Source: Perkinsus olseni
Lineage: Eukaryota > Perkinsozoa > Perkinsida > Perkinsidae
NCBI GenBank assembly: GCA_013115135.1
Contig: JABANP010000071.1
Coordinates: 62,001-126,000 of the forward strand
Length of the DNA: 64,000 nucleotides
Direction of reading: 5' to 3'
Position 1 is the first letter of the stretch, and each line of letters starts with the position of its first letter. The notes beneath the pieces were generated by a model. The model did not search any database. It had not been told where the DNA came from and saw only the letters and a program-made list of their open reading frames with translations. This document shows positions 1 to 43,762 of the stretch, piece after piece. A program made the translations under genes and the position numbers.

Positions 1-3000
1 GCAACATAGTCGCAGATAGACGCTTTCGAGCCCATCCTGGCGAAGGAGCGTAATGAGATCGTAGAGCCGAACATAGTGTAGTCCAGGACTGAGCATTTGG
101 ACCCTGCACGAGCCAACGACCGCAGAGATAGTGAGCTGCCCAGTGCAGCGCAGTCGATTACTGATATACCTCCACCGATGTCAGCGCGACTGACGGCAGA
201 GATGCTGCTACCGAAACGAGCCAGCCCACGCAATGAAAGGGAGCTGCCTACTGTTACGTAGTCTAATATGGACGCGCTCGAGCCACACCTGGCGAACGAT
301 CGCAGGGACAGCGAGGAGGCCATACTGGTGGCAGCGATGACCGAGAGCTTGTAGATCGACCCTACTCGGGCAATGCCGAAGACAGAGCAGCCACTGCCCA
401 GTCGAGCCGCCCCACGGAGGGACAGTGTGCTACCTAAGGCAGCGTAGTCGAGGACACTCTGCTGGCTGCCGAGGCGAGCGAAGGACCTCAGGGACAGCGA
501 CGACCCGAAAGAAGCCACGCCAATGGTGCTAAGAGAGCTACCAACCTGCAGGGCTCCGCAAGCGGATGCTGAGCTGCCAAGCCTGAAGGCGGCCCGTAGT
601 GAGAGTGAGCTACCCAAGTTCACGTAATCCAGTGCCGTGAGCGTGCTGCCCAGGCGAGCGAAGGAACGAAGAGATGCTGTGCTGGCCAAGGTGGCGAAGT
701 CAAGGCTACTCAACGCTCCACTGAATCGTGCAGAGGCGACCACGCTGATGCCGCTACCACAGCGAGCGACTGATCGAATAGAAAGGGCACTGCTGAGCGT
801 CGTGCAGGCGATAACAGAAAGCTTGTAAGCCGAGCCCAATCGAGTCAGTCCAAGGATGGATATACCACTACCCAGCCGAGCAGCCCCTCTCAGCGACAAA
901 GTACTGCCGAGAGTACTGAAATCCAGCAGCGTCATCTTAGAACCGAAGCGGGCGAACGACCTCAGTGAGACGGAGGACCCCAGAGTGGCCTCCTCGAGCA
1001 CCGATACGGCGCTGGCTAGCCGGATGGACGACGTCACAGACACGCTGCTGCCGAGCCTCGCCAAGCTCCTCACAGAGAGTGAGCTACCGATATTCACGAA
1101 TTCCAGGATAGAGACCTTGGACCCCAGTCGAGCGTGGCTCCTCAGCGACAGGCTGCTGCCCGAGGCTGCTCATTCCCAACACAGAGGCCGCACCAGAGAA
1201 GCGGGCGAAGTTACGCAGTGACAGGGAGCTGCCCAGGTGAGCGGACCCGATCGCTGTGAGAGCAGCGCCAAGGCGGCATAGGCCAGCTGTCGATATGCCG
1301 CTCCCTACTCTAAGACAAGATCGGATAGACATGGCACTGCCGAAGGACCCACAGTCCAAAATCGACAAAGTCGATGACAGTCTAGCGGCCGATCGAATAG
1401 AGAGTGATGACCCGAAGGAGGCATCGGCGATAACAGAGAGCTTGTAAACCGACCCAACACGCGTGAGTCCGCACACAGAGATACCACTGCCGAATCTAGC
1501 CACGCCTCTGAGGGACATCGAGCTGCCAAGAAGCGCATGCTCCAGAACAGTCGCGCAGCTTCCAAGCCTCGTGAACGACCGCAGAGAGAGGGTCGAGCCA
1601 AAGTGAGCCTGGCCGATAGCCGACAGGGAAGATCCGAGGTTCGAGACGCCAAAGGCCGATACAGTACTGCCAAACCGAGCGAGCGATCTGCAGGACAGGC
1701 TGGAGCCGAGAGCTAAGATTATCCAAAACGCTCAGCTTACCAGACAGCCTTGCGAAAGGATCTCAAGGAAAGACTCGAGCCCAAGCTACTCATCGAAACG
1801 ACTGAGAGGCTAGAGCCGGTCCTCAGCAAACCGAGCAGGGAGAGATCAGCGCCCAGGCGAGTGAACTGACGAACCGAGAGGGAGCTGCCAAGATGGGTGA
1901 AGCCGATGGTTGATATCTTTGTACACCGAGCCGATCCTGGCGAGGCCGAGGACGGAGACGCCGCTGCCTAGCCGGACCATCGACCTCACAGAGAGGCTAC
2001 TGCCCAGCACGGCCAAGTCGACTAGTGTTAAGTCACTGCCGAGACGTGCGAACGATCTGAGCGAGAGCGACGAACCGAAGTGGACGCTGTCGAACACGGA
2101 TAGCTGGCTGCCCAGGCTAGCTGTAGAGAGAGCAGACATAACACTGCCGAACCTCGCAGCAGACCTCAGAGAGAGCGAGCTGGCAAGACCGACGAAGTCG
2201 AAGACTGAGTAGCAGCTGCCGAACCTGGCGTAGCTGCGCAGTGACAGGCTGCTTCCAAGATGGACCTCATCGAGGACTGAGAGGGCAGCACCCACGCGAG
2301 AATCCGTCAGCACTGACAAACCGCTTCCGAGCCGCACTAAAGCTCTCAGTGAGAGGCTGCTGCCGATAGCGGTCGAGTCGAGAACAGTGAGCGATGAGCT
2401 GAGCCGGGCGAATGACCGCAGTGATAGGGACGATCCAAAAGTACCGTGACTGAGCAGGGACGTCGATGAACCCATGTAACAGAAGGAGCGCAGCGAGAGG
2501 GTGCTGCCGAGCTCCGCTGAACCGAGTATAGAAGCCTTGCTGCCAAGCCTAGCGAAGGACCTCAGCGACAGGCTCGAGCCGAAGAGACCCTCGGTTATCA
2601 CAGAGAGCTTATAGACAGAGCCAACCCTAGTCAGACTAGCAACCGAGATTGCGCTGCCGAGCCGTGCGACTGATCGTAGGGAGAGGGAACTGCCAAGTGC
2701 ACAGGCGTCCAGCACTGATACGGCCTCACCGACGCGTACGCTGCTGAGGGTCGACACGGAGCTGCCAAGGCGGCTGAACGATCTGAGCGACAGCGAGCTT
2801 GCCAGGTGAGAGGCAGCAATGGTGGACAGCTGGTAGAGGGAGCCAAGTCGGGCCAGACCGTAAGCACTGATTCCGCTACCGAAGCGGGCCATGCTCCTCA
2901 GAGACAACGAGCTGCCGAGTTCCACGGTATCGAGGACCGTCAGACTCGATCCTAGTTGAGCAAGCCCTGTGACGGACTGAGCGCTGCCGAACCTCATGAA

Positions 3001-6000
3001 GCTTCTGAGAGACAGAGAGCTTCCGAGCAGGGCTCCATCGAGCACAGAGATACCACTTCCCAAAAGGCCACTAAGCGCTACCGAGACGGAGCTGCCGGCT
3101 CGGAAGAGGGCACGGACTGATAGGGAACTGCCAAGATGAGTGTAATCAACAACCGAAGCTGTCGAGCCGAGCCGAGAGAACGATCGCAGCGAGAGGGACG
3201 AGCCGAATGCAGCGGCATCTAGCACGCTTGTGGACGACCCTAGTAGGCAGCTAGACGCTACCGTCAGTGAGCTTCCGAAGCGCGTGAGAGCACGTAGTGA
3301 CAGGGAACTGCCGAGGGCAACGTGGTCGAGCGCAGTGAGGGTCGAACCAATTATTGCTAGTCCCACAGTAGATACAGTGGATCCTATTCGGGCTACCCCT
3401 CGCAGTGATAGGGCGCTGCCCAGCGTGGTGAAGTCGATCACTGACAGCTTGGAACCGAGTCTCGCGAATGACCGGAGAGAAAACGATGATCCGAGAGTCG
3501 TGGCATCAATAGCACTAACGGCTCCTCCCAGGGAACTGTCACCGAAGATCGACACGGAACTGCCAAGCCTGGCGAAGGAGCGGAGAGACAGAGTACTGCC
3601 GAAGTTGCTGATGCCCACCACCGAGAGCTCAGCCAGCGACTCGACTCGGAGAACCCCGGCAACAGAAAGACCGCTGCCAGCTCGCACGAAGGAGCGAATA
3701 GACAGGCTGCTGCTGAGAATGGTGAAGTCCAGTACTGAGAGATGGCCGCATAGCTTGGCAAAGGATCTCAGTGAGAGGGAGGACCCGAAAGCAGCCTCGC
3801 TTACCACGGACAAAGACTCACCCACGCGAGTCCACGAGTGGACCGAGAGGGAGCTTCCGAGCCGAGAGAAATCGCGTAGCGACAAAGAGCTGCCGAGTGA
3901 GCAGGCTTCCACAGCGGAGAGAGTACTGGCCAGTCGAGCGAACGACCGCAGCGACACCGAAGAACCGAAGTTGGCGAAGCTCAGAACCGACAGCTGCTCC
4001 CCCACGGTAGCGCTCTTAACCAGGGACATAGAGCTCCCGAGCCTTGCGAAGCTTCGAAGGGACAAGGAGCTGGCAAGCCCTGTCTGTGCTATAACCGAGA
4101 GGCTGTAGACGGAGCCGACCCTGGCTAGTCCTAGAACGGACACTGAAGAGCCCAGTCTTGCCATTCCTCGTAGGGATAGGGAACTCCCGAGCTCGATCAA
4201 GTCAAGGACGCTTGCGGTGCTGCCCAAGCGAGTGAAGGCTCGGAGCGACAAGCTGGATGCTAGCTGGGCCTCCTCTATCACAGACAAAGTGCCTCCGAGC
4301 CGGGCAAGACTGACGGTCGAGAGGCCGCTGCCAAATCTAGCGAGCGATCGCAACGACAGTGAACTGCCTAGTGTGGTTGATGCGATGGCAGAGAGTGAGC
4401 CGCCGAGCCTTGAGAAGCTCCGGAGGGATAGGCTGCTGCCGAGATGAACGGCGTCAAGCACCGACGTGCTGCTACCGATGATGGCTCGACTGAGGCAAGA
4501 TAGTGAGCTGCCTAGCCTCGCCATTGCCTTCAACGACACAGCGCTGCCGCAGAGGGCGAAGTCTAGAGCACTGAGCTTACTGCCTAGCCGTGCGAATGAG
4601 CGCAGCGACAGTGACGAGCCCATGTGACCCTGGGCTAGCACCGTGAGGGAGGAACCGAGGGAAGTGGTACCGAACGATGATACAGAGCTACCCGACCGAG
4701 CGATGGCTCTGAGACTCAGTGAGCTGCCGAATGTAGCACCGTCGAAGATAGACAGACTGCTGCTCAGCTGGGATCTGCCAAAGACGCTGAACGCACTTCC
4801 AGCTCGGGAGAAGCTCCGCAGAGAGAGTCCCGAGCCGAAGGTTGCCATCGACACGGTCGAGACGGATGAGGCAATCCGCGTTACAGCGAGCACGCTCAAG
4901 GAGGAGCCTGTACGGATGAAGTTGCGGATGGAGAGGGACGACGAGAACTGGGAGTAGTCAAGCACTGACAGGCCGCTGCTCACTCGGGCGCGTCCAACCA
5001 CCGACATCTCGCTGCCGAACCGAGTGAAGCCTCTCACGGACAGGACTGAGCCCATGAGGACGTAGTCAAAGACGGATACGGAGGAGCCTACTCTGGAGAG
5101 GCCGAATACAGAAAGCCGACCACCGAGTCGGGCAAAGTTAGAGAGCGAGAGAGAGCTGCCAAGGCCGGTGCAGTCGAGCACGCTCAGAGCGCTGCCTAGG
5201 CGGGCTGAGTCGAACACAGAAGCGAAACTGCCAATCCTAGCCAAGGAGCGTAGTGAGAGGGACGAAGCCAGCGTCGTGGCATCAAACGCAGACAGCGCGG
5301 AACCTAGGCGAGCAGTCGAGAAGATGCTCAAGTTAGAGCCGAGCCTCATGGCAGCTCGGAGGGACATGGAGCTTCCCACAGCAACCATCTCCAGGACCGA
5401 CAGACCAGCAGCCAACCTTGCCGTACTGAACATCGAGAGGCCCGACCCGAGTCGCAGGAAGTCTCGAAGAGAGAGCGAGCTGCCCAGGTTGGAGAATTGG
5501 AACACTGTCAGAGCACTGCCGAGTCTGGTAGCGGTCCGTATAGACAGACTACTACCCAGGGTAACGTAGTCGAACACGGTAGCTGTGCTGCCGAGCCGAG
5601 CGAATGATCGTAGAGAGAGCGACGAGCCGAAAGCACTGACGCCCACAACGGAGAGGTCATGCAAGGAGCCTACTCTTGTTAGACCAGCCACTGACACGGT
5701 GCTGCCAAATCTAGCGAACGCCCTTAGGGACAGGGAAGACCCCAAATCTAGGCAGTCCAGGACAGAGACCGAGCTAGCAAGCCTCGAGATTCCAGAGACA
5801 GAGAGAGTACTTCCAAGCCGAGCGAAGGCGTTGAGAGAGAGGCTGCTGCCGAGGTTGGCCATCTCGAAGGTCGAGATCGGCTTGCCATACCGAGTGATCG
5901 CAGCAAAAGATACGCCGCTGCCGAACCTCATGAAGCTCCGCAGGGATAGTGAGCTGCCAAGGACGGCAGAGTCCGCAACGGAGACCCTCGACCCGAACCG

Positions 6001-9000
6001 AGCAAACGACCTCAACGACAGGGATGAGCCGAACGTGGCACTCGCAATTACGGACACCTTGTACACGGAGGCCAGTCGAGTGACTCCGTCCACGGACAGG
6101 CCAGAGCCCAGTCTAGCGAAGCTCCCTGATCGACAGTGCACTGCCGAAGACCATAGCGTCGAATGCCGAGAGCTTAGCACCGAAACGTCCGAATGATCCC
6201 GAGAGAAATGGAGCTGCCGAGTTGCATGGAGTCCAATGCACTGAGCGTTCCCGCGAGACGAGAGAGCCCAACCACAGAGCAGCCACTGCCAAGGCGAACT
6301 AAGCCGCGGAGCGACAGAGAGCTGCCAAAGCTGGAAGCGTCAAGAACCGAGAGCTTCCTTCCTAGCAGGGCCTGGCTGAAGACGGACGAGCTGGCTGCCG
6401 AACCGAGTGAGGGATCGGAGGCTCAATGAGCTACCGAGGCCGACGAAGTCGAATACCGAGGTAGAGCAACCCAGGCGTGTGAACCTCGTAATGGAAAGAG
6501 TGGAGCCGAATACGGCGTAGTCCAACACTGAGACTGTAGAGGCAAGCGTTGTTTGACCGTACAGAGAAACAACGCTACCGAAACGAGCCATTGCCCTTAG
6601 CGACAGGCTGCTTCCGCAGGCCACCATGTCCAGTGTGCTGAGAGAGGCACCCAGCTTGGCATCCGATGCGACAGAGAGCCTGCTGCCCGAGCCGCACGAA
6701 GGACCGCAGTGATAGACTGGAGCCGAGCGACACGAAGTCGAGACCGCTGAGCGAGCCGGCGAACCGAGGACTCTGCAGAAACAGAGAGTACGCTACCGAG
6801 ACGAGCACTTCCTCTCAAGGACAACGAACTTCCCAAAGCGGTGTAGTCAAGGACGCTGGCTGAGCTTCCCAGCCGAGCGAAGGAGCGTAGAGATAGGGAA
6901 GACGCCAGATCCGTTCGGGCAATGACAGAGAGCTTGAACACGGAGCCGATGCGAGCGAGACCAGTCACCGAGATGGCACTGCCAACGCGAGCGAAGCTCC
7001 TCACTGACAGTGAGCTGCCCAGAGCGGTACCGGCGATGACCGAGAGCTGATAGACAGAGCCCAACTCTGGCTAGACCAACGACGCTGATACCGCTGCCTA
7101 CTCGGGCGAACTCCCTCACAGAGAGCGAACTGCCGAGGCAGGCGTACTCCAAGGCACTCAGGGCACCACCGACTCGAGCGAAGGCCCGAACCGACAGGGA
7201 TGACCCAAGAGCAGTGAAGCCGACAGCAGAGCAGGACCCACCGAATCGCGCCCAACTCACCGTACTGAGGGCACTGCCTAGCCGACCGCTGCCAGCCACA
7301 GAGATGGCACTGCCCAGCCTCACGTGCGCACGGAGGGACATAGAGCTGCCACAAGTGGCAAAGTCCATCACTGTTACTTTGGAGCCCATCCTAGCAAAGC
7401 TCCTCAGGGAGAGGGAGCTACCGAAATCGGCGAGGCTCGTGACGGACATCGTCCCCATGCCAATCAGATTGCTAACTATAGAGAGCGAGCTGCCAAGGCG
7501 AGCAAAGCTCCTCAAGGACAGAGAGCTACCAACATCGGTCTCGGATATGACCGAGAGTCTGTAGGCCGAGCCGAGTCGCAGGAGGCCGACCATCGACAAG
7601 CCGCTGCCTAGCCTCGCGACATTCCTTAAACTCATGGAGCTGCCGCAGCTGGCGTAGTCGAGAACAGAGAGCTTACTGCCGAGCCTAGTGAGGCTACGCA
7701 GACTGCAGGAGCTGCTGAAGCTGACTGCATCGACAACACTCAAGGTACTGCCGGCCCTCAGCCAACCGAAAGAGCTGGTCAAGGAACCAATGTGAAGCCC
7801 GGTGGCTATGGACAACGTGCTGCCTAGACGGCCGAAGGCTCGGAGTGAGAGCGCGCTCCCGAAGGAAGCAAACGCCAAGGCACTCACTTTCTCGCCGACG
7901 CGAGCAAAGTACCTCAACGACAGGGAGGAGCTCAATGATGCCGATTCTAGTATAGAGACGCGACTGCCGAGCCGACCAAAGCTGCGGAGCGAGAGAGAAG
8001 AGCCGAAGGTCACCTCTTCGATGACCGATAGCGTCGACCCGAGAGCTGTAGCAGCGAAGGCGGACGTGACACTTCCTAGCCTTGCCAGTGCCCTCAGTGA
8101 TAGAGACGAGCCCAGGACGGCACAGTCCAGGGCCGAGAGCTGGCTGCCAAGTCTAGCGAATGACCTCAGTGATAACGAAGAGCCTACATGCACGGCGCCC
8201 AGGACGCTCGCAGTGTCCCCCAGCCGAGTCCACGAGAATATGCTCGCGACTGATCCACCGCGGATGCCGTCGAATGCCGAAAGGGTACTCCCGAACCGAG
8301 CAAAGGCACGGAGCGATAGGCTGCTGCCAAGCGCTACTTGGCACAGCGCAGAGCCGTGGCTGCCGAGCCGAGCGAACGACCTCAGCGAAAGCGAAGACCC
8401 GTAAGAGCTGCTGCCCAGGACCGAGATGGCGTTCCCGTAGCGACCTAGTCCGGCCACCGATAGCCCACTTCCGATTCTGGTCTGAGCCCGAACGGACAGG
8501 GCGCTGCCGAGCGTGAGGTAATCAAGGACACTGGCAGAGGATCCGAGACGGCCGAAGGAGCGGAGGGATAAGGCGGAGCCGAAGTGAGCTGCGCCTACCG
8601 CAGACACTGTGTCTCCCATCTTGGTGGCGGATAGTACAGAGGCTGTCGAGCCAAGCCTGGCCATGGCCCTCAAGGACAGAGAGCTGGCAAAACTCGAAGT
8701 TGCAATAACCGACAGTTTATAGAGAGATCCAATACGTGCCAAGCCGGCCACGGAAACACCGCTGCCAAGCCGGGCAACGGAACGCAGAGAGAAGGAGCTA
8801 CCCAGGCACGCATAGTCGATGACTGTTGACTTGCTGCCGAGCCGAGCGAATGACCTCAACGACAAGCTGGAGCCGAAAACAGCCTCGCCCAGCGCAGAGA
8901 GGGACGAGCCTAGAGCGCACTCGGAGTGGACACTAATGGTACTGCCAACGCGACCAAAGGAAGCCAGGGAGAGTGCGCTGCCCAGGGAGGTGAAGTCCAG

Positions 9001-12000
9001 TACACTGACCTTAGAGCCTGCACGAGCGAAGGACCTCAGAGATAGTGATGAGCTGATAGCAGTACAGTCGACCACGCTGGTCTTGCTGCCGAAACGGGCG
9101 AAGCTGCGGAGTGACAATGATGAGCCCACAGAGGTCATGCCGAGCACGGAGATGCTGGACCCAATTGTAGCAGCTTCAGCGGCAGAGAAGGAACTGCCGA
9201 GCCTCATCGCTGCTCGTAAGGACAGTGAGCTGCCGAGTGCTGTATAGTCCAGAGCAGTTAACTTGCTGCCGAGCCTTGCGAAGCTTCTCAGTGAGAGCGA
9301 CGAGCCGAATGCCGCCTCCTCTACCACGGAGAGAGACTGGCCCACCTGGATGAGCCCGTGCAGGGAAGCATCACTGCCAATGCGGGCGAAGGAACGCAGA
9401 GAGAGGGAGCTGCCTAGGGACATGCTAGATATGATAGAGAGGTCGTAAACGGACCCCAAACGAGCTAGGCCATAGACCGAGACGCTGCTACCACAGCGAG
9501 CCACGGCCCGCACTGAGAGAGAGCTGCCGAGGAGCACATAGTCCAGTACACTAGTCTTGCTTCCGACCCGAGCGAAGGACCTCAGAGACAATGACGAGCC
9601 AAGCTCAGTTCGAGCAAGCACTGACAGGGAGTCGCCGAGGGCAGCCGAGGCTATTGTAGACAGGGCAGAACCGACGGTGATAGTGCCCACCATCGAAAGG
9701 GAGCTGCCGAGACGAGCGAAGTCTCTCATCGATACAGCGCTACCAAAGGTGGCGTAGTCCAAGACGGTGAGCTTACTACCGAGCCTTGCGAATGACCGTA
9801 ACGACAGTGACGATCCTAGCTCTGTCTGGGACACGGTACTGAGTCCAGAGCCAAAGCGAGCGAAGGAGCGGAGAGACAGGGAAGATGCGCAGGCAGTCGC
9901 CGCTATAACAGAGAGCTTGTAGACTGAGCCCACGCGAGCAAGTCCTACAACCGAGAGGCCGCTACCGATACGAGCGAACTGCCGCACCGACAGAGAACTG
10001 CCGAGAATGGTGAAGTCTAACACACTGGCTTTGCTGCCGAGTCTAGAGAAGGACCTCAAGGAGAGGGCCGATCCGAACTGTACCGAGTCTACGACTGACA
10101 GAGTAGAGCCCAGCCTAGTATGCTCGAGGGCCGACAGCGAGCCGGAGACTTGAGCGGCGCCTGTGGTAGACAGGCTGCTGCCTAGCCTGGCGAAGCTCCT
10201 AAGAGAGAGGCTGCTGGCTAGATGCTGCGATGCTATAACGGAGAGCTTGTACGCCGAACCCACGCGGGCTAGGCCGATCACTGAGACGCCACTGCCGAAT
10301 CGTGCCAGGGACCTTAGCGACAGAGAGGACCCAAGGTCCACTTCCGCAAGCACACTGGCGCGACTACCCACTCTGCTGAAGGATCTCACTGAGAGGGTAC
10401 TGCCCAGCTGGCCGAAGTCGAACAGGCTGATGGATTCGCTGAGCCGAGCGAGGGACTGCACTGACAGGGTGCTCCCGAGGCGTGCGCAGGACCTCAACGA
10501 TAGAGAGCTTGCCAGGCTTGCACTACCAATCACAGAGACAGAGTATAGTGACCCGACACGGGTGAGGCCGGTGACCGAGAGGGAACTACCGAGGCGAGCT
10601 GCTCCGCGGACGGAGAGAGAGCTGCCCAGTCGTACAAAGTCCAAGACGCTGGTGTAGCTACCGAGACGAGCGAAGGACCGCAGCGACAGTGATGATCCGA
10701 GCGTGCTAGAGGATACCGTGGACAGTGAGCTGCCGAGGGATGCCGATTGAACAACCGAAAGCGAGCTGCCCACTCGAGCCAAGCTACGGACAGAGAGGGA
10801 GCTTCCAAGGGTAGTGTAGTCCAGCGCGGATAGGGCGCTGCTGAGACGAGCAAACGATCTCAGCGAGAGCGTGGAGCCGAAGCTTCCTTCGGCAAGCACA
10901 GAGATACTGCTCCCTAGTCGCGCCAGCCCCACAGTGGACACGCTGCTGCCCAGTCTGGCCACGTTACGCAGAGATAGGGAGCTGCCCATCGTGGTCGATG
11001 CTATGACAGAAAGCTGGTACACCGAGCCGACTCTAGCCAGTCCGACAACTGATAGCCCACTACCGAGCCTCGCGAAAGCCCGCAAGCTCAGCGAACTGGA
11101 GAGCGAGGTCGCATCAATCACGGTGAGCTTGCTTGCCAGCCGGGCAAAGGAGCGCAAGGAGAGGGAAGACCCCAGCGCAGTCTGCCCGAGGACACTAACG
11201 CTGTCGCCAAGAGTACCGAAGCCTAGGGCTGATACTGTGCTGCCGAGCCGCAATAGGTCTCGCAGGGACAAGGCACTACCCAGCGTGACGAAGTCAAGGG
11301 CGGTGACATCACTACCGAGGCGGGCGAAGGAACGCAGCGATAACGAGGAGCCCATGGTAGTCGAGGCTATAACGGAGAGCTTGTAGACTGAGCCCACACG
11401 ACAGAGAGCAGCAACCGACAGGCCCGAACTGAGCCGCGCGAATGCACGGACGGACAGACTGCTACCGAGGGTTGTTGCGTCCAGCACGGACAGGGAACCG
11501 GCCAAGCGGGCATTAGCAGCCGTCGAAACGCCACTGCCAAGCCTTGCGAAGGACCTCAATGATAGCGAGCTGCCGAACGACGCGTCGCTGATAACAGAGA
11601 GCCTGTACACTGAGCCGACTCGAGCTAGGCCGAGGACGGACAGACCACTGCCGAAGCGTGCAGAACTGCGAAGTGATAACGACGAGCCGAGAGAGACAGT
11701 ATCGAGCACAGAGAGAGCTTCTCCTAGTCGTGCTACTGAGACCGCCGACAAGCCGCTACCGCACCGACAGAAGTTCCGTAGAGACAACGAGCTCCCTAGA
11801 ACAGCGAAGTCGAGGACTGACACGGTGCTGCCTAAATGAGCTAATGATCGCAGAGACAGCGATGAGCCGAAGGCTGCGCTGGCAATCACCGAGAGCTCGT
11901 AGATCGAGCCAACCCTAACCAGTCCAACGGCGGACAGGCTGCTGCCGAGCCTCGCGAAGGACCTCAGGGACAGGGAGCTGGCCAGGTGGGAGGAGGCAAT

Positions 12001-32600: not shown

Positions 32601-35600
32601 CCGAGGTGAAGGAAGTCGAGTATGCTGGTACTGGAGGCCAGTCTGGTCCTTCCCACAGTGGATAGAGCGCTGCCAAGTCGGAGAGAACCCTCGAAGGCTC
32701 AGAGAGCTACCCAGATGGACGAAGTCCAGCGTCGACATGCTGCCTCCGAAACGACAGGATCCGAAGGACGAAAGACTCGACCCCAACCGCGCAAACGATC
32801 TCAGTGACATACTGCTGCTGAGTGAAGGCTTGCCCACACGCCGAGAGACTCTCTCCAACTCTGGCACGACCGAAGGCAGACAGGCTGCTGCCGAACCTTG
32901 TGAAGGCTCTGAGCGAGAGGCTGCTGCCCAGCGTAGCGAAGTCCAGGATCGATACGCTGGAGCTCAACCGAGCTCCCTCGAGCAGCGACATCGAGCTGCC
33001 CACGCGGAGGAGCTTCCGGATGGAAAGAGCGCTGCCCAAGGAGGCGAAGTGCATGACGCTCATCGTACTGCCGAAGCGAGCCCCGTCGAAGACCGAGAGG
33101 GTCGAGCCGAGCCGAGCAAGGGACCGCAGTGACATACTCGAGGACAGCTTCGCGAAGTCAAGGACGGAGATTGAACCTCCGATCCTGGCAAGGCCAAAGG
33201 CAGACAGGCAGCTCCCGAAGCGGGAGAAGCTTCGGATGGAGATCGATGAGCCAAGGTGCGTAAAGTCGACCAAGGAGAGGGAGGAGCCGAAACGAGCCAC
33301 GCCGAAGACCGACAGGCTGCTGCCGAGGCGACCGTACGAGCGGATCGAAAGACCAGAGCCAATCTGGAAGAAGTCAGTGACCGATATCGGTGCTACGGCT
33401 CTGAGCTCTCCGGTGATGGACACTGAGCTGCCCGAGTCGGGCGACACCACGTAAGGACAGGCAGCTGCCGAGGATGAGGTAGTCTAGGACCGACAGGGAG
33501 CCCGCTATCCTCGCTTGGTCGTATACCGAGAGGCTGCTGCCAAGCCTGCTGACACTACGCAGGGAGAGCGATGATCCAAGGTGGGAGAAGTCCACTATGG
33601 ATACCGAAGAGCCGATCCTTGCCCTGCCTAGCAGCGACAGGGAGCTGCCAACTCGCAAGGAGTTACGAAGGGAGAGGGAAGAGCCGAGGATGAGGTAGTC
33701 TAGCACCGACATAGACCCGCCAACTCTAGCATGAGTGTACACCGACAAGGAGGAGCCCATACGGACGAGGGACCGTAGGCTGAGGGAGCTCCCTGTAGCA
33801 GCGTAGTCCATGACCGACAGGGCATCGCCGAGCCTTGACAGCCCGTAAACCGAGACGTAGCTGCCCATCCTCGATAGGGACCTCACAGAGAGAGTGGATC
33901 CAAGCTGGACGAAGTCGAGGGCCGAGAGGACGCTGCCGAACCGGGCCAAGCCGTACACGCTGACAGCACTGCCGAATCTCACGAATGACCTCAGGGACAT
34001 GGTGGAACCCAGCATCACGAAATCGAGTATGGATACACTACTACCAGCTCGGAACAAGGACACCATCGACAGTGCTGATCCGAGCCTAGCAGTAGAACGG
34101 AGTGATAGACTACTCCCGAGAGAGGCGAACTCGACCAGAGACATACGACTGCCGAGCCTAGTCTCGCCGAAAGTCGACAGATACGATCCGAGTCGGGCGA
34201 AGGACCTCAGTGAGAGAGTGCTGCCAAGCTCGACTGAGTCCAGTGTGGACAGCGTGGAGCCTAGTCTGCCCAGACCGAAGAGCGATAGAGCCGACCCACC
34301 CCGAGTGACGCCCCGAATGGATAAGGCGCTGCCCAGGTGTACGGAGCCCAGGGTCGACAGAGAGCTTCCGCAGCGAGTCGTGGCGAAGGTCGACAGCGTG
34401 CTGCCCAGCCGAGTGAATGTACGCAGGGATAGCGAGCTTGAAATCACGGTGTAATCCAAGGCTGATAGAGAGTCTCCGAACCTTGATACCCCGTACGCTG
34501 ATAGAGTGCTGCCAAGCCGGGCCGTTGCACGTAGGCTAAGAGTGCTCCCGAGCTGGAGGAAGTCCAGAACTGTGGCGGAGCGGCCGAGTCTGGCACAGTC
34601 GTAGACTGACAGAGAGCTGCCCAACCTGGCGTGAGACTGCAGGGACAAGGAGCTGCCCAAATGCAGGAAGTCGAGGATCGACACGGACGACCCGAGACGG
34701 GCTCGATCGTAGGCCGACACCGTGCTGCCCAGCCTGGCGAAGCTCCTCAGTGAAAGGGAGCTGCCCAAGTGACTATGATACAGCACCGAAAGGGAGCCTC
34801 CCAGCTTGGCTAGGCTGTAGACCGACATGTCAGAGCCCAGGCGAGCTGAAGAACGAAGGCTCAAAACACTGCCCAAAGTAGTGGCATCGAAGAGGGACAT
34901 CGTAGAGCCAAACCTAGTGCAGGAGAACGCACTGAGGGTGCTCCCAAGCTTGAGGATGCCACGGGCACTGATAACAGAGCCAGCCCAAAGTGAGCTGTGG
35001 ATCGAAAAGGTACTGCCTAGTCTGGAGTAGGAGCGGATGGACAGGGCGCTGCCAAGACCGCTGTAGTCCAGGACTGATAGCTTATCGCCGAGCCTCGTCC
35101 ATGAGTACACCGAGAGGTCGCTGCCGAGCCTAGCGCAGCTTCTGACCGACAGGGAGCTGCCCAGGACGATATAGTCGAGCGTTGACAGCGAGCTGCCGAG
35201 CCTCGAGGTGGCGAACACGGAGAGTCCCGAGCCAAGGCGCCCTGTTGCTCGCACGGACAGTGTCGAGCCAAGATCGCATAGCTGGCGGGCTGAGAAGTAG
35301 TCCGATAGATGCGTGGAGCCGTAGACGGAGAGGGAGCTGCCCAGCCTAGCGTAGGAGCGTAGTGATAATGATGAGCCGACATGGACGTAGTCGAAGACCG
35401 AAGCTGATGAGCCGAGACGAGAGCCTCCGAAGACTGAGAGAGCACTGCCCGCTCGAGCGAGGGATCGCACGGAGAGGGTCGATCCCAAAGTCGCATAGGC
35501 TAGCATGGACAAGTCGCTGGCGAGTCGTGCCGAGCCGTAGGCTGATAGGGAACTACCAAACCTGCCGACAGCTCTGAGGGACAGTGAGCTGCCCAGCCAG

Positions 35601-38600
35601 GCATGGTCCAAAGAGCTGATGAGCGACCCAAACTTGGCCATAGCGTGCAGCGACAGACTGCTACCCGAACGCATGAAGCCACGGAGCGATAGGGCACTGC
35701 CGAGGGAAACGAGGTCGACCGTACTCAGAGAGAGACCGAGTCGAGCACCCCCATAGACTGAAAATGTGCTGCCGGCTCTCAACAGTCCACGCAGAGACAG
35801 GGAGCTACCGATCAGGCTGTAACCGAGGATGGAAGCGCTGGAGCCGATACCAGCACTGCCGAACGAGGAGAGGCTCGATCCCAGGCGAGCAATGGCACGC
35901 AAGGATAGCGAGCTGCCAAGAGCTCCCCAGTCCAGGATTGAAGTCGAGCTGGCCAGTCTGGCGGTATCAACCAGTGAGAGGGTAGAGCCTAGCCTTGCCA
36001 CCCCACGAAGGGACATGGACGACCCCAAGGCAAGAAAGTCCAAGACTGAGGAGCTGCCGCTTATACGGGCGCCACGGAAGGCCGAGAACGCTGAGCCGAG
36101 CCGCATCACAGACCGGACCGAGAGGGCACTGCCGAGGTGGGAGAAGTCGCACACAGACAGACCCTGGCCCAGGCGTGCCGAGGCGAATGTGGACAAAGTC
36201 GATCCGAGCCTTGCCAGGGAGCGCATGGAGAGGGAGCTACCGAGGTAAACACAGTCGAGCACCGACGCCGTGAGGCCCAGCCTGGCTGTCGAGAAGACTG
36301 ATGCGGCTCGACCGAATCTCGCGTACTGTTGGAGAGAGAGCGTCGAGCCCAGAGTCACGTAGTCCAGCACCGACATCGAGCAGCCTAGCCGAGCCAGACC
36401 GGCCATCGAGAAGGCCGAACCGATTCGGGTGTGTCCTCTGAGGGAGAAGGCACTGCCTAGATGGACGAAGTCTAGCACGGAGACTGAGTCCCCCATCCGA
36501 CTCATACCGTATACTGAGATCTGGCTACCGAAGCGGGCGAAGTTCCTTAGAGACAGAGCAGAGCCCAGAGCGGTGAAGTCTAGAACGGAAGCTGCAGAGC
36601 CCAGGGTAGAAGTGCCGTAGACCGACATGGTGCTGCCGGCTCTTATAGCCCCCCGGACTGACAGACACGAGCCCAGGGCGCTGAGGTCCAGGACGCTGAA
36701 GCCCGACCCTAGACGGGTCGTTCCGAAGAGAGACACAGTCGAACCCATGCGGACCAAGGACCGCAAGGAGAGGGCGGAGGCCAGGGTTACACGACCCAGG
36801 GTGGACAAGGAACTCCCCAGCCTCGAAGTAGAGTACACTGAGAGGGTACTGCCCAGCCTAGAACTGGATCGGATACTCATCGTACTGCCCAGGGCGAGGT
36901 AGTCCAGTACCGAGAGGCTGTGAGCGAACCTTGCCGCAGCTGCCACCGAGAGAGTGCTTCCAGCTCGGATGTATGCTCGAAGGGAGAGAGCACTACCAAC
37001 AGCTACGAAGTCTAGTACGGATATGCTGCTGCCGAACCTCGACACGCCGTAGGTTGAGATCTGACTGCCTACACGACCCATCGACCTCAGCGACAGCGCG
37101 CTCCCGAGTGCAGTGAAGGTCATCACAGAGAGGGCCGAGCCCAGCCGTGCCGTGCCCAGCAGGGAGATGGTGCTGCCGAAACGAGCGAAGGATCGGATCG
37201 ACATCGACGAGCTGAGCGTGGCAAAGCCGAGGTTGGAGAGCTGGGAGCCGAACCTAGTCTGGCCGAAGACCGATACTGCACTCCCGAGTCTCATCAGGCC
37301 ACGCAGGGAGAGGGCACTACCGAGGGTAATGCTGTCGTAGGTGGACAGAATACTGCCCAAGGCGTGCCATGCTGAAGACTGAGACCGCAGAGCCAGCCCG
37401 AAAGAAGGCCCTGAGGGACATGCTACTGCCTAGAGCTAGCATGTCTAGCATAGAGACTGCACTGCTGTGGCGGACTTTGCCGTACACAGAGAGGGAGCTG
37501 CCGAACCTCAAGCTGGATCTGATGGACATCGTACTGCCGAAGTTTACGAAGTCCAACACCGACATACTGCACCCTATACGGGCCATACCGTAAATCGAAC
37601 AACTCGATCCGAACCGTGAGAAGGAACGGAGCGATGTCGCACTGGCAAGGTTAGTGAAGTCTACTATCGACAGGCTGCTGCCCATCCGTCCGAGGCTGAA
37701 GACGCTGATGGTGCTGCCGAGGCGGGCAAAGTCCCTGACTGACAGGGAACTGCCGAGGGCCATGAAGCCGAGGGTCGAGATGGAACTACCCATCCTGGCA
37801 ACGGCGAAGACCGACAAGCCGCTGCCAGCGCGAGCGAAGGTCCTCAAGGAAAGGGAGGAGGCGCAGGTGGCGAAGTCGAGCACCGATATTTGCGAACCCA
37901 GCCGGGCCATGCCAACAACGGAAAGGCTGCTGCCGAGGCGAGCAAAGGAGCGCAAAGACTGGGTGGATCCAAGGGCAGCGAAGTCCAGCAAGCTGAGGGT
38001 GTTGCCGAAGCGTGCAAGGTAGTGCAGCGAGACTGAGCTGCCCAGACGAGCGAATGCTCTCAGAGGAGAGTGAGCTGCCACCAGGCCGAAGTCCAACACC
38101 GACAGGCTCGAGCCCTAGGCGCGAACAACCGTACACCGACACTGAGCTACCAGTGCGACCGAAGGCCCTCACGGAGAGGGCCGAGCCGATGGCTACGGAG
38201 TCCAGAGTGGAGAGGGTCAGGCCCAGCCTGGAGGCACTGAAGACACTGAGAACGCTCCCTAGCCGGGCGAATTGCCGCATCGACACGCTACTGCCGAGGT
38301 GGGCCGCGCTGACGACAGATAGGTGACTACCTAGTCTGCATAGACCGAACGATGATACGGCGCTCCCGAAGCGAGCCAGACCACGCAGAGACAGGGCGCT
38401 GCCGAACGAGGAAAGACGTCCAACACACTGGTAGAGGTGCCTGCCCTGGAGGCTGCCGAACAGGGAGATGGCAGAGCCAAAGCGAGCGTAGGACCGCAAA
38501 GACATCGTACTACCACAAAGGGCGTAGTCTAGAGCAGACAGGGAGGAGCCGAGTCTGGACAAACCAAAAGTCGACAAGGCGCTTCCGAGGCGAGCCTGGC

Positions 38601-41600
38601 CACGAAGGGAGAGAGACGATCCTAGGAAGGCGAATGAAAGAGCCGAAATGCTGTCACCTAACCTGCTGAGGCTGTGGATCGACAGGGATGAGCCGAGCCG
38701 AGCGAACGCCCGGGTCGATAACGAGGAACCGAGGTTGATCAGGTCTAGAGTTGAGATAGTAGCTCCTATCCGAGCCAGGCCGGCAGTTGACAGGGCACTA
38801 CCGATGCGGGCTAGGTTACGGACAGAAAGACTGCTACCGAGTTGAAGGTAGTCCAGGATACTGGCCGTGGAGGCCAAGCGACCGATACCGAGGAGGGAGA
38901 GGGCGCTGCCAAGGCGGCTCATCTGGCGTAGAGATAGCGAGCTGCCCAGTATGGCGAAATCAATGACGGATGACGATGAGCCGAAACGCGCCAGTCCACA
39001 GGCCGAGACTGCCGAGCCCATCCTCATGAAGGATCTCAACGAGAAGGAGCTGCCCAGAGTCGCTGTGTGCAGTGCCGAGACAGAGCTGCCAAGGCGGGCC
39101 AGACCGAATACAGAGAGGCTCGAGCCTGCTCTCGTCGCGGACCTCAAGGACAATGATGAGCCCAGGTGAATGCAGTCTAGGATTGAAGCACTGCTCCCTA
39201 GCCTAGCAACGGCGTAGCTTGAGAGGCTAGAGCCGAGTCTAGCGAGAGAACGGAGGGACAAGGAGCTGCCAGCATGTGCGTAGTCCAGGACGGAGAGACC
39301 GTCGCCAAGACGAGCACGGGACACCAAGGAAAGGGAGCTGCCCACTCTAACGTATTGTCGCAGTGACATGCTGCTGCCGAGAGTCGCTGCATCCAGGAGA
39401 GACAGAGCCGAGCCGAAGCGTCCAACACCGCACACCGACAGAGCACTTCCGAACCTTGAGACAGCCCTCAAACTGATCGAGGAGCCCAAAGCCGCAGTGT
39501 CCAACAGCGAGAACCCTTTACCCATACGGAAGTAGCTGTGCATAGAAAGGGACGAACCCAGGCGAGCTGCTGCCCGCAAGGACAACGAGCTGCCCAGGGC
39601 TATCGAGTCTATGGCGGAGAGGCTCGAACCGATCCGAGCCAGACCGTAGCAGGACAGATCCGAACCGAATCTCGTGAAACCTCGGATACTCATAGCGGAT
39701 CCCAGGTTGATGAAGTCCAGGCCCGATAGAGATGAGCCGTAGCGAGCCATGCCGTATACTGATATCGAAGAGCCGCTCCGTGCGAACTTTTTGGAGGGAG
39801 AGCGACGACCCTAGCGTGGAGAAATCGAGGACCTGAGAAGGAGCACTTGGCCGGGTGTCAGGGGGCAGAACCGATCTTACGCTCAGGCTAGAGCCAAGGA
39901 CTGCACGGTCGAAGAGGCTGCAAGTGCTGCCAATCCGAGCCAACCCTCGAAGGCTCAGGGATGAGCTCAGTGTCGCCAAGTCGAGGACGGACAGGGATGC
40001 GCCAAAACGAGAGGCTCCGAATCTGAGGAGCTGATGACGGCGCAGAGCGTTAGTCGGAGACGTCATTACAGAGAGGTCGCACTGCCGAGCCGCATGAAGG
40101 ACTGTAACGACAGTGAGCTGCCGATGTTGATGAAGTCCAACGTGGTGAGGGATTTCCCTAGGCGGGCTCGACCTGGCAGCAGACAACGACCTTATTAGAG
40201 TAGAGAAGAGTACCACAACTTACCAGCAACAGACATGAAGCTGCCCAGGCGGAAGGAAGCTCGGATGGAGGCTGAGCTGCCTAGGGTTATCTGAGATGAG
40301 GAAGGGGAATTAATACAGCGGGGAGGATTAGTGGCCGTACCCAGTCCAGAACAGAGAGGCGACTGCCGAGGCGTGTCGTGCCGTACAGGGATAGCGCACT
40401 GCCAATTCTGGCATAGGTTCGGATCGAGGCCGAGCTACCGAACGTTGCGTAGTCCAAGACGGACATCGACGACCCGAACATCTGAGCAGGAAAGACTCCG
40501 CATCGGAGAGAGACGAGGACGACTCACCGCCGAATTAAAAAGGGAGAGGCCGCTGCCAAGCTTAGCGAAGTTGTAGACCGAAAGGGAGCTGCCCATGGAC
40601 ACGTAGTCGAAGATGCTAACGGTCGAGCGAAGTACTGCCGCTCCGTAAACCTGTGGAAGGAGCGGTTCATATCAGTGGTTCCCCGACGAGCGCCTACGCT
40701 AAGGCCGTAGCCAGAGTCTGGAGTCCCAATTTGTGGGTCGGTGGGCTCAGAGTTGCCGATGTTGATGAACCCCTGACGAAAGCAAGGCCCATCAGAGAGG
40801 TCGCACCTCCACTACAGCAGCTTACTTCAACGGACAAGCTCGATCCAACTGTAGCGATCTCTTGAACACTTATAGTGCTCCCGAGCCGAACGAAGGATCG
40901 CACCGACAGAGTCGAGCCGAGTACCACACGATCGTACATATGTCTGACCAAGGGACAACTATGGGACCGACGAAGAGGACAACGAGGGCACACTTACACA
41001 TAGTTCCCCAGACGAGAGAAGCCCATCACTGAGACCTGTGGTCGTTTAGACTCGTCCGGATCCTCAGGGTCATCAGGTTTTCCTATAGCCATCCAAACGC
41101 TTCAAAAGTATTACTGGATTGATACCGCTCTCACCTGGTCGCTTGGTCGAGATCCACAGATTCGAAAAGAACTGAGCTTGCCTCCAAAAGGCCGACTCCC
41201 CAGTGACCGACAGGGCGGCCGAGAAGTGTACGGCTTCCTCAACCTGTTAGTGCTCAGTACCATCTCCGACGTAAATCACCGATCCTACCGAGAGCGACTT
41301 CTTAAAAACTGCCACATCAAGCACCTCCATCGAACTGTTGAATATGGCCTTCTTGTAGTACCGCGGCAGCTCAGCTGAGTAAACGTTGAGTCAATCAACA
41401 CAAGAACGACAACACGAGAATGCTCTTACCTGAACCGTCTGGGGGTGCAATCATAGCCCCTCCTTCTCTTCCATCATCCAGCATCAGTATCAGCACCGAC
41501 ACAGGATCCGCGCCTAGTGATAACACTACAAGGGAAACAAAGAACAGAATGGCCTCACCGATGATGTCGTGGGCCATGATGTGCAAGTCGGTCTTCATTT

Positions 41601-41911
41601 CCACGCCAGTCAGCTCCTTTTTCGCCACGAAATCCCACTGTGGCAGGCCTTGCTTATTCAAAGCAAATCTCGAGGCCTGTGCAGAGATGCCGTCCGCCCA
41701 GCTTCAAGCGCATTTGCCTACCTGTGCGGGGCTAGGGTCGACCGTGAGCGGGCCTAGTAGTGTTATGTCACCACGGCGTCCAACAAGAACCCATCCCTGT
41801 ACGAGCTGAGCAGCAGGAAAGCAGTGAGCCTTGCTGGGAACTAACCGTCGATCTGATCACCTGTAGTGGCAGAAGTGTGAGCCACAATATTATCGAGTGC
41901 CAGCGGTGCAT
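1..41911 (-). CDS. Giant 12-residue-repeat protein, predicted secreted or surface (5' complete, 3' end off the window)
   Basis: Read from right to left this is one gene. Exon 1 (41846-41911) encodes 22 residues that look like a signal peptide. The next exons carry about 200 non-repetitive residues, then degenerate and finally canonical 12-residue units. From 39832 leftward there is one uninterrupted exon reaching the window edge, with about 1,100 units (about 13,300 residues). The start at 41911 is chosen because the hydrophobic core follows it directly; in-frame ATGs at 41923 and 41953 are alternatives. Conceptual frame is lost at about 40 one- or two-base insertions, but the 12-residue register is restored after each, and no stop remains once they are discounted. 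The product is Ser, Leu, Arg, Gly and Ala rich and nearly free of Pro, Trp and Asn. Function is unknown. A fibrous beta-solenoid coat or wall component is an inference from periodicity and the leader only. That it is one protein gene on this strand is well supported by splice sites that each restore the unit register. Confidence 0.85.
14600..40100 (-). repeat. Right (N-terminal-ward) array section: 36-residue triads
   Basis: Most of this section cycles through three unit types: A (LGSSLSLRSFAR), E (LGSSLSVYGTAR, also VFG or AYG) and B (LGSSLSVLDFVH), a period of 36 residues or 108 bp. It is clearest between 33.4 and 37.4 kb and also evident at 18.7-24.8 kb. Each triad offers Arg at position 8 and 12 of A, Arg at position 12 of E and Asp at position 9 of B. 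If triads stack as coils these would line up as charged ladders, which is an inference. Confidence 0.75.
39833..41845 (-). other. Cluster of 14 short introns at the 5' end of the giant gene
   Basis: Inferred introns (plus coordinates): 41806-41845, 41677-41721, 41514-41558, 41375-41429, 41244-41288, 41083-41134, 40944-40997, 40773-40825, 40651-40697, 40482-40527, 40291-40340, 40173-40223, 40023-40069 and 39833-39880. All are GT-AG, 40-55 bp, often with a pyrimidine tract or a CTAAC/CTGAC-like branch sequence. From 40944 leftward, removing each intron restores an exact 12-residue unit, except at 40651-40697, which follows a non-repeat insert; for example the 39833-39880 intron splits a unit between LGSSLS and VLDFST. 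This is strong internal evidence both for splicing and for the strand. The five outermost introns rest on frame continuity and splice consensus only. Confidence 0.8.
41846..41911 (-). other. Predicted signal-peptide exon of the giant repeat protein
   Basis: Exon 1 reads MHRWHSIILWLTLLPLQV followed by a short polar end (IRST). A basic N-terminus, a hydrophobic core of about 12 residues and a polar end fit a eukaryotic ER signal. No other clear membrane segment is visible. The hydrophobic stretch that a naive frame shows near 41,515-41,560 lies in a 45-bp in-frame intron and is not translated if that intron is spliced. Confidence 0.55.
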
Positions 41912-41953
41912 AGGAAAATGCATCTTATTAACAGCCTGAAGGCAAGGCGGCAT

Positions 41954-43169
41954 TGATGATGAGGAGCGGTGGCGTGGGATGAATTACACTCTTAGTATTA
42001 ATTGTCTTGCCTTATTAAGAGCAGAAGACGAATTATGCCATACCCAGGGTGATGAGCCTTCACGGGTAACAATCCCGAGAAAGGCAAAACCTGTAAGGAA
42101 GAAGAGCAGCAGCCGAGAAGGACCCCGATATCCCGTGCGATGACGACGGTAGTGCCCGAGCAACCTCGCTCAACCGTCAATGCCTCTACGCGTGCAACCC
42201 AGTGAAGAGACGAGCAAGGCAGGCGTTTCTCAAATCCACCGGACATCGGCCGCTGGTTTAACGATATATCGTAGCCAATTCCATCGTAAGCAGTGACCGA
42301 GGCCACACGAAGCATCGTGAGAGGTCGATTGACAAACCCAAGATACAAAGGTCTAGGTGGGAGGCAAAGCAGAGTGATGAGCGGAGTACAGTGGTTGATT
42401 GATAGAGCATACAGTAGTGGGGTAATTACACAAATCGGCTCATTCGGATTGACGCTGCCAGCCGGCCGTGTCCGCGTGGACCTGAGAATTTCCAACTAGG
42501 GGACTTTAGAAGAGTCCAATAACAGTTGCCATGTAGTGTAGAGATCGAACCATATAGTTTATAGTGTCGTATTATGGAGAATAAGCATGCTACACGCAGG
42601 TTCACAGGCCTGACCAACGCGGGCCTCGAGCAACTTCCGATCAGTTTCGATCCTGCGCCGACACTTGCCAATCTTACGAATCTTGCATTTTCTCAATGTA
42701 GCGTGCACGCTCGAAGCTATGCCGCGCGTCGATTATGTCTACGTCGCAGTACCCACTGCGGTAATCCCGTAGTAACAGAGCATTACTGTTCGGCTTCGTA
42801 TTTCCTGCTTGGTTCGTCTTGACGTCCATACGAACTCGGCATAGTAAGCGGAGCTATACTACATGACCACCGCTATCACTGTGAACTTGAACTCCTACAT
42901 GTTCGGCCAAGTTCAACAGCGGTGTGTCGTACATGTTGTAGCAACTGGCATCTTAGCGAGACCATTCCCTCTCCCCGATGTTAATTACTCTATTGAGATG
43001 CAGAATAGTGCTGCTTTCTCATTGCATGTCTTAACGATGGAGCCCTGTCGGCCTGATGGTTCGCGGGTGGCTAAAGGGCTATCTATCTTGTACAAGTACG
43101 GCTGTATTGTCATCCACGATTAGTCAATCTGTCCTGTAGGAGATTCTCACAAAGCTCCTTCAACGATCC
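41954..43169. other. Spacer upstream of the giant gene; weak ORFs only
   Basis: This stretch should contain the promoter of the giant gene. It holds a 165-codon minus ORF (41998-42495) and two plus ORFs (42574-42822, 83 codons; 42863-43123, 87 codons). None resembles a family I know, none shows convincing splice continuation, and composition gives no clear coding signal. I treat them as probably non-coding or as fragments of unidentified genes. Confidence 0.4.
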
Positions 43170-43451
43170 TTACGAAGCGAATCCTGATACAGATGATGTC
43201 GACCATCTGAAGATATTATTGGCCGTCGAGGCTAGTAGAAGGAAGAAGGCCAACAAGTAGGCTTCTGTTGTCCCACGCTCGGGTTGCATCTCGTCGTCCT
43301 GGTCAGTGAGCTCTTGAAACTTCGACGGGCTCATGACCAACAGTTTCTCGAAGAACAGCGCGTAAAGCGAGCGGTCTTCGTGGAGAGGGACCGAGAGGTG
43401 ATGATGCGCATTCGCGGCAGCTGCTCGAAATGAGCCTGAACGTGGAAGCAA
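43170..43451 (-). CDS. Weak unrecognised coding exon with C-terminal hydrophobic segment
   Basis: A 93-codon minus ORF with a plausible protein-like composition: an acidic middle (QELTDQDDEMQPE) followed by a hydrophobic stretch (AYLLAFFLLLAS) near the end. It could be the last exon of a small membrane protein whose upstream exons I could not place, or a chance ORF. No family is recognised. The neighbouring minus ORF at 43303-43497 is in another frame and is probably a shadow. Confidence 0.25.
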   Translation of the reverse strand: MLPRSGSFRAAAANAHHHLSVPLHEDRSLYALFFEKLLVMSPSKFQELTDQDDEMQPERGTTEAYLLAFFLLLASTANNIFRWSTSSVSGFAS

Positions 43452-43762
43452 CCGTGGGTTCCATCAATGGTGTCGTTCGTACTTGCAGAAAACCCAACTA
43501 CTGGACGAGCTTCACAGACTCAAGCTTGCGAATGACAGCCTGCGGCACAAACTACAATCACGACAGGAGCCTTGCGATCAGCGTCGGATTACAAAAGGCA
43601 CTGGTGTGAAGAACGCCTTATCATCGCCCAGCGTGTAGTTTCATGGTGATACAGGTTAGACAGAACGGTGGGCCATCCATTGGTAACGAGAATGCCGCCC
43701 GGATGCATACTGTCAGTCGCGTACGAGGACCAGGACAAGGTGATTCGGCTTGAGTTGGTATG

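What the first reader, a model, noticed from the sequence alone, without database searches (positions are those of the whole stretch)
1..41911. A single gene with an exon of at least 39.8 kb encoding about 1,100 copies of a 12-residue unit
The sequence shows continuous unit register from 41.0 kb to the left edge on one strand, a leader exon, splice sites that restore the unit exactly, and no stop once one- and two-base breaks are discounted. The product inside the window would be about 13,500 residues, near 1.4 MDa by simple arithmetic, and the gene is not finished. I know of no named family with this unit. A secreted or cell-surface fibrous protein is the working idea.
Basis: partly seen in the sequence, partly recalled or inferred. 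Interest (0 to 1): 0.92.

Follow-up and report, generated by a model that had tools for sequence, protein, structure and literature searches.

The report
Giant self-cleaving fibre gene in Perkinsus
A shellfish parasite carries a gene whose main exon is about 57,000 bases long and encodes about 1,550 copies of a 12-amino-acid unit, capped by the self-cutting folding helper known from virus tail fibres, so it probably makes a very long secreted protein fibre.

Summary
The minus-strand array starts behind a leader exon (window 41,923 or 41,911). Its long exon begins at 39,832, leaves the window and ends at contig base 44,620: 57,213 nt, 1,552 twelve-residue units. Just past the array, outside the window, short spliced exons encode a Peptidase_S74 domain (endosialidase intramolecular chaperone, E 1.6e-10) with its Ser-Lys dyad, a helical-looking tail and a stop. 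So it belongs to a known kind, the S74 fibre proteins (phage tail fibres, polinton-like virus fibres, MYRF), at extreme length. Named relatives occur in dinoflagellates, Perkinsus olseni (this genome) and Vitrella. A sister gene (C210, probable allele C523) reads through 12,806 codons with one break. The window copy's one-per-kb frame breaks, mostly +1, also split the neighbouring metabolic gene at a similar rate, so they are probably assembly errors. DNA repetition is gone while the protein pattern is kept, which implies selection on the protein. Best reading: a roughly 2 MDa secreted chain that trimerises into a beta-fibre and is released by self-cleavage. The boldest open reading is that it forms the zoospore's flagellar hairs.

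The parts
41861..41923 (-). Exon 1: start (ATG at 41,923, alternative 41,911) and hydrophobic leader MHFPMHRWHSIILWLTLLPLQ
   Evidence: GT donor at 41,860. Signal peptide judged by eye, no predictor run
41722..41796 (-). Exon 2: GWVLVGRRGDITLLGPLTVDPSPAQ, aligned to the N-terminus of P. olseni FOZ60_008328 (P0076)
   Evidence: tblastn 6e-6 across exons 2 and 3; AG acceptor, GT donor
41559..41676 (-). Exon 3: ASRFALNKQGLPQWDFVAKKELTGVEM..., continues the P0076 alignment
41430..41525 (-). Exon 4 (boundaries read by eye)
39881..41374 (-). Further short exons with the first 12-residue units, separated by short introns; individual boundaries not all fixed
39833..39880 (-). Last intron before the long exon (GTAAG...TTCTCAG); splicing restores the unit
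1..39832 (-). Window part of the long exon; continues to contig C679 base 44,620 (57,213 nt in all). 12-residue unit, 36-residue super-period

Best explanation
One protein-coding gene of Perkinsus olseni makes a secreted chain of roughly 19,500 residues (about 2 MDa): a leader, an N-terminal head, about 1,570 twelve-residue units (two hexapeptide beta-strands each), and a C-terminal Peptidase_S74 intramolecular chaperone with a helical tail. Shown from sequence: anatomy, register, splice sites, S74 domain, Ser-Lys dyad, a sister gene, and relatives with the same order of parts. Inferred from the S74 family: in the secretory pathway the chaperone trimerises three chains, nucleates a beta-helical fibre from the C-terminal end and then cuts itself off at the dyad, leaving a rigid, very basic fibre 0.5 to 1.5 micrometres long whose length is set by the number of units. 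Inferred: the fibre is extracellular.
For: S74 domain at the array's 3' end, 1.6e-10 by hmmscan and 5.2e-8 genome-wide, spliced with GT/AG sites, S-D-R-R-L-K dyad spacing as in MYRF S587/K592 and endoNF S911/K916. Ser and Lys are invariant in the 43 relatives aligned, out of 72 listed with S74. Of the eight relatives read, seven carry the unit upstream of S74 (the eighth is an N-terminal fragment). Tail-fibre PHROG hits for a relative, 1.1e-17; PDB profile hits to a phage long tail fibre (1.7e-8) and weakly to MYRF (0.035). Selection on protein: in 1,192 unit pairs 36 residues apart, third codon positions agree at 32%, first and second at 52%; Ser6 in 1,499 of 1,552 units uses all six codons; no DNA tandem repeat reported. 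Sister gene C210: open frames of 6,467 and 6,339 aa.
Against: No RNA or peptide evidence here. The window copy carries 58 frame changes in its long exon. The one finished structure model of the array is weak (pLDDT 61; the other four 27-37) and matches nothing in the PDB at E<=0.001. Trimerisation, cleavage and localisation are untested. No Pfam family matched the array piece scanned.
Confidence: 0.75

Rival explanations
1. The C679 copy is a decaying pseudogene of the sister gene on C210/C523.
For: 58 frame changes in 57 kb against 1 inside the array in 22 kb of C210 and 2 in 18 kb of C523; its 3' end has duplicated fragments downstream. Both it and its neighbour could be decaying together.
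Against: No stop codon away from a frame change in 18,621 codons, where 2.6% of random substitutions make a stop, so about 8 are expected at five substitutions per indel (1.5 at one per indel). 54 of 58 changes are +1, whereas decay gives mixed or deletion-rich indels (general knowledge). The neighbouring metabolic gene is broken at a similar rate. The S74 end looks intact (by eye).
Confidence: 0.1
2. The +1 breaks are real and read by programmed +1 frameshifting, as in Perkinsus mitochondria.
For: Strong +1 bias; mitochondrial genes of Perkinsus use frameshifts (title and passages of PMC9550989).
Against: The sister gene with the same unit needs almost none. Breaks also occur in a neighbouring gene whose paralogue is one open frame, and 2 of its 6 are not of +1 type. 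No shared context seen by eye (not tested statistically).
Confidence: 0.03
3. The array is several genes, or not coding: a GC-rich degenerate satellite with chance open frames.
For: No transcript evidence; open frames are short between breaks.
Against: One leader and one S74 end for the whole array; protein pattern kept while third positions are near random; relatives in transcriptome sources (mmetsp, eukprot).
Confidence: 0.05
4. Same gene, but each chain folds alone as a left-handed hexapeptide beta-helix (LpxA-like), giving a fibre of about 0.5 micrometre rather than an intertwined trimer of about 1.5.
For: Six-residue sub-period and weak PDB sequence matches to LpxA/LpxD-type acyltransferases.
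Against: S74 domains act on homotrimers with a beta-helical stalk (PMC8326128 passages). No Pfam family for the one 1,633-aa array translation scanned. The monomer model is poor, where a simple solenoid usually models well (general knowledge).
Confidence: 0.2
5. The gene is a captured or resident fibre gene of a polinton-like virus rather than a host structural gene.
For: PF13884 at the C-terminus of large fibre proteins (up to 3.9k residues) is reported as ubiquitous in polinton-like viruses of most eukaryotic groups (PMC12220804 passages).
Against: Spliced gene with leader peptide and a spliced sister gene; length beyond a 14-40 kb viral element (element size from the abstract). No viral hallmark gene was looked for, so an ancient viral origin stays open.
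Confidence: 0.1

Closest known systems
Peptidase_S74 (PF13884) phage tail fibres and spikes (endosialidase NF type)
   Same: C-terminal S74 with Ser-x4-Lys dyad; beta-repeat stalk upstream of it; profile matches of relatives to tail-fibre PHROGs and a phage long tail fibre in the PDB
   Different: Spliced nuclear gene with leader peptide; stalk of about 1,570 units; no enzymatic or receptor domain seen
S74 fibre proteins of polinton-like viruses
   Same: Eukaryote-associated large proteins with C-terminal S74 (PMC12220804 passages)
   Different: Those are described with laminin, collagen-like or baseplate domains and up to 3.9k residues; here one 12-residue unit fills about 19,000 residues
MYRF / MrfA (eukaryotic S74 transcription factors)
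   Same: Eukaryotic, S74 dyad at the same spacing, made at the ER membrane (PMC8326128 abstract and passages)
   Different: No DNA-binding domain found in the pieces scanned; leader peptide and giant repeat array instead
Dinoflagellate 'Peptidase S74 domain-containing proteins' (Alexandrium monilatum P0027, A. catenella P0066)
   Same: Same 12-residue unit array followed by S74 (P0027)
   Different: These two records are 387 and 421 residues; the search admits only lengths near the query's, so full lengths are unknown (unnamed S74 relatives of 1,612, 2,175 and 2,783 residues). No paper describing them found
Vitrella brassicaformis P0128
   Same: Unit array similar to P. olseni P0076 (BLASTP 3e-22)
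   Different: 1,205 residues, a weak TSP1 match below cut-off in front, no S74 match

Membership tests
Peptidase_S74 / intramolecular chaperone proteins | PF13884 domain above the curated cut-off | tested here: met
   41.6 bits against cut-off 22; 5 places in the genome over the cut-off
Peptidase_S74 / intramolecular chaperone proteins | Ser-Lys catalytic dyad five residues apart | tested here: met
   S-D-R-R-L-K in C679 and C210; invariant in 43 of 43 relatives aligned; MYRF S587/K592, endoNF S911/K916
Peptidase_S74 / intramolecular chaperone proteins | C-terminal position behind a beta-repeat stalk, followed by a helical end | tested here: met
   Order array - S74 - helical-looking tail - stop in C679 and C210; helix judged by eye
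Peptidase_S74 / intramolecular chaperone proteins | Homotrimer and self-cleavage | not testable with these tools
   Needs expressed protein
MYRF transcription factors | Ndt80/PhoG-type DNA-binding domain before the S74 (recalled) | tested here: inconclusive
   No such match in the four 3' pieces and one array piece or in P0076; the whole N-terminus of C679 was not scanned
Left-handed beta-helix hexapeptide proteins / bactofilins | Pfam hexapeptide or bactofilin match over the array | tested here: not met
   No family for one 1,633-aa array translation at E<=1; bactofilin only in other proteins P0109 (below cut-off), P0125, P0126
Polinton-like virus fibre genes | Neighbouring viral hallmark genes (capsid, ATPase) | not tested
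   No search for them was run; open frames beside the locus were only listed

The most novel reading that the evidence does not exclude
The giant S74 fibres are the core filament and length ruler of myzozoan flagellar hairs (mastigonemes): three chains are zipped into a beta-fibre in the endoplasmic reticulum, freed by S74 self-cleavage and exported to the flagellum. By geometry an intertwined trimer of the C679 product would be about 1.5 micrometres long (the 0.8 A per residue is my arithmetic). P. olseni zoospores carry a one-sided row of tinsels printed as 1.3 +/- 2.9 um long (PMC7398310 passage; the spread is probably a misprint), and hair-like structures are seen between the nuclear membranes in Psammosa (PMC3377698 passage).
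Probability: 0.2. Interest if true: 0.9.

Novelty: new variant of a known kind. Interest (0 to 1): 0.72.

Why it matters
It shows a phage-tail-fibre folding device used by a eukaryote to make fibres of about 2 MDa per chain, encoded in a single 57 kb exon that annotation breaks up: the only named public P. olseni hit is a 402-residue 'partial'. It would give a concrete candidate for an unidentified long extracellular structure of perkinsids and dinoflagellates, possibly the flagellar hairs, and a rule that unit number sets fibre length. It also warns that frame breaks in this contig are probably not biology.

Tried and rejected
Programmed frameshifting and pseudogene decay were tested and disfavoured. 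A single-chain beta-solenoid was considered; the structure model, built from 23 of 28 candidate pieces of the window, was too weak to decide. A viral scan gave 67 loci of 397 candidate stretches whose match is mainly the S74 part, 23-50% identity; a polinton-like origin is kept as a rival. Species by 18S rRNA was not obtained: RF01960 was asked five times and not answered, so the species name rests on protein P0076. One search used a 14-base guess; it matched once in the array and once on C1, the latter probably by chance. The strict S-D motif count in viral loci (5 of 67) was too narrow; a loose one gave 63 of 67 but would often match by chance, so neither is used. A profile trained with free spacing collapsed to six-residue half units and was redone.

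Full report
WHERE IT IS. The window is bases 62,001-126,000 of contig C679 (170,304 bases) in a 61.5 Mb assembly of 968 contigs. The species is taken to be Perkinsus olseni: the public protein FOZ60_008328 (P0076, 'partial', Perkinsus olseni) matches exons on contig C261 of this assembly at 100% in two stretches of 31 and 48 residues, with others at 90% or as gapped alignments across introns. An rRNA check was asked five times and not answered.

OBSERVATION. The array is real and on the minus strand. A 12-position profile built on a clean frame of contig C210 (507 units in 6,339 residues, 96% of the frame) finds 1,582 placements between contig 44k and 104k: spacing 36 nt in 1,431 intervals, 42 nt (a 14-residue unit) in 54, 37 nt in 48. 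Units starting in the window number 1,105; units between 44.7k and 103.0k number 1,573. The unit is roughly [LF]-G-S-S-L-S-[VL]-x-[SDG]-x-A-[R] with a 36-residue super-period. The long exon starts at window 39,832 behind a TTCTCAG acceptor and ends at contig 44,620 before a GTAGG donor: 57,213 nt. Exons 2 and 3 align with the N-terminus of P0076.

NOT A DNA SATELLITE. Tandem Repeats Finder reports no array in window 1-41,911. DNA self-matches within the long exon are few and short: 77 pairs, the longest 216 bases at 73%. In 1,192 unit pairs 36 residues apart, 43% of residues agree; third codon positions agree at 32%, first and second at 52%. Ser at unit position 6 is present in 1,499 of 1,552 units and uses all six codons. 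An old array has been held by selection on its protein.

WHAT IT IS. Beyond the left window edge the array ends and a short intron leads to a Peptidase_S74 domain (hmmscan 1.6e-10; genome search 5.2e-8), then further small exons and a stop near contig 43.9k (read by eye). The dyad motif S-D-R-R-L-K has the Ser-Lys spacing of MYRF (S587/K592) and endoNF (S911/K916) (passages of PMC8326128). The genome has five S74 places over the cut-off: three on C679 (the gene and two downstream duplicates, one with a stop), one on C210, one on C523. A further S74-like fragment at contig 7.0-7.5k is seen but not listed.

THE SISTER GENE. The repeat was found on C679, C210, C523 and C261 (128 matches, a lower bound: 66 of 142 candidates scored). 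C210 and C523 are 96% identical over the 24 kb compared, probably alleles. C210 shows open frames of 6,467 and 6,339 residues, C523 of 7,846 and 4,561, the 5' frame running towards the contig end; C523 has a further 393-residue piece before its S74 exon. C261 begins with the array and carries 5' exons matching P0076, with a frame change of its own; it may be the missing 5' end, which I did not prove. Giant, nearly uninterrupted frames of this unit therefore exist in the species.

THE FRAME BREAKS. In the long exon I count 58 frame changes, 54 of +1 and 4 of -1 type, 39 in the window. The 3 of 1,552 units with a stop are all at a frame change. If the copy were decaying with five substitutions per indel, about 8 chance stops would be expected elsewhere; at one per indel, 1.5. 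The control is next door: window 46.2-51.5 kb (+) encodes a pyruvate oxidoreductase fused to a flavodoxin/FAD/NAD reductase. Its paralogue on C15 is a single open frame (1,826 aa stop-to-stop; 1,783 aa from the first ATG). Here the same protein changes frame six times in 5.2 kb, four of +1 type and two not (read). That is 1.1 per kb against 1.0 in the array. Similar rates in two unrelated neighbours point to insertion-biased errors of this contig. It is not proof: both genes could be decaying together. C210 and C523 are far cleaner: one and two changes inside the array in the 22 kb and 18 kb held (one further change listed in each lies at an end of the held stretch).

RELATIVES. Searching one 676-residue array piece gave 131 proteins at E<=0.001 among 8,000 scored candidates; 72 of the 120 listed carry PF13884. 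Named ones: Alexandrium monilatum, A. catenella, Symbiodinium necroappetens, Symbiodinium sp. CCMP2456, Durusdinium trenchii, P. olseni. A longer query gave 18 proteins, among them Vitrella brassicaformis; an N-terminal query (P0076) gave 56, including P0076 itself and many of the same S74 proteins. In the 43 relatives aligned the dyad is invariant. A relative matches phage tail-fibre families (phrog_1980, 1.1e-17), while an array piece alone matches only two families of unknown function. The alignment matches a phage long tail fibre (6f45, 1.7e-8), a putative tail fibre (8jov, 7.5e-4) and weakly MYRF (7dc3, 0.035) and an LpxD-type acyltransferase (4e75, 0.035) in the PDB.

MECHANISM. Established for the family (abstract and passages of PMC8326128): S74 domains trimerise and cut themselves off, leaving a trimeric stalk. 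Inferred here: the same happens in the secretory pathway. The unit splits into two hexapeptides, one strand each. With 4.8 A between strands, an intertwined trimer rises 0.8 A per residue and a single-chain helix 0.27 (my arithmetic), giving 1.52 or 0.51 micrometres for C679. The array is very basic (pI 11.6; Arg 7.9%, Glu 0.7%, Pro 0.1%), so it may bind polyanions (inference). Structure prediction of an array piece gave an all-beta model of low confidence (pLDDT 61) with no PDB match at E<=0.001. This neither proves nor excludes the trimer.

FUNCTION. The best-supported claim stops at 'secreted long fibre'. The bold reading is flagellar hairs: P. olseni zoospores bear a one-sided row of tinsels printed as 1.3 +/- 2.9 um (PMC7398310 passage), and hair-like structures lie between the nuclear membranes in Psammosa (PMC3377698 passage). 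The match in length is suggestive only; coat, adhesin or extrusome filament remain open.

NOVELTY. Large S74-ended fibre proteins of polinton-like viruses in eukaryotes are in print (PMC12220804 passages), as are MYRF and MrfA (listing). Searches for Perkinsus with Peptidase_S74 (0 papers), dinoflagellate with S74 (19 papers, 15 listed, none on this by title), dinoflagellate with endosialidase (2) and Peptidase S74 with protist (1) found no description of this gene or unit in this open-access library. Larger proteins are known (titin, PKZILLA; recalled), so size alone is not a record.

Noticed in passing
window 46,183-51,479 (+): Pyruvate oxidoreductase fused to flavodoxin, FAD and NAD reductase domains; split over three frames by six changes, while two paralogues on C15 are open frames of about 1,830 residues.
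   Followed up: yes
C679 contig 969-44,843, left of the window (L003-L007): Mosaic of 95-97% duplicates, including copies of the fibre gene's own 3' S74 end (contig 7,467-10,444 and 29,062-30,299 against 41,855-44,843) and older copies near 90%.
   Followed up: partly
C679 contig 31,158-32,849 (-): Open frame of 564 residues that looks like a BED/hAT-type transposase by eye; no Pfam match at 0.001.
   Followed up: partly
P0008, P0049, P0052, P0059, P0077: Arrays of the same unit (two named Symbiodinium) with many Ser replaced by Leu, Phe or Pro and no S74 listed; perhaps decayed or edited.
   Followed up: no
P0117 (Durusdinium trenchii): A few units of the same repeat sit inside a von Willebrand factor A domain protein of 972 residues.
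   Followed up: no
P0109 (824 aa, unnamed): A short version: looser LSV-type repeats plus an S74 tail resembling the Perkinsus one; may resemble the ancestral form.
   Followed up: no
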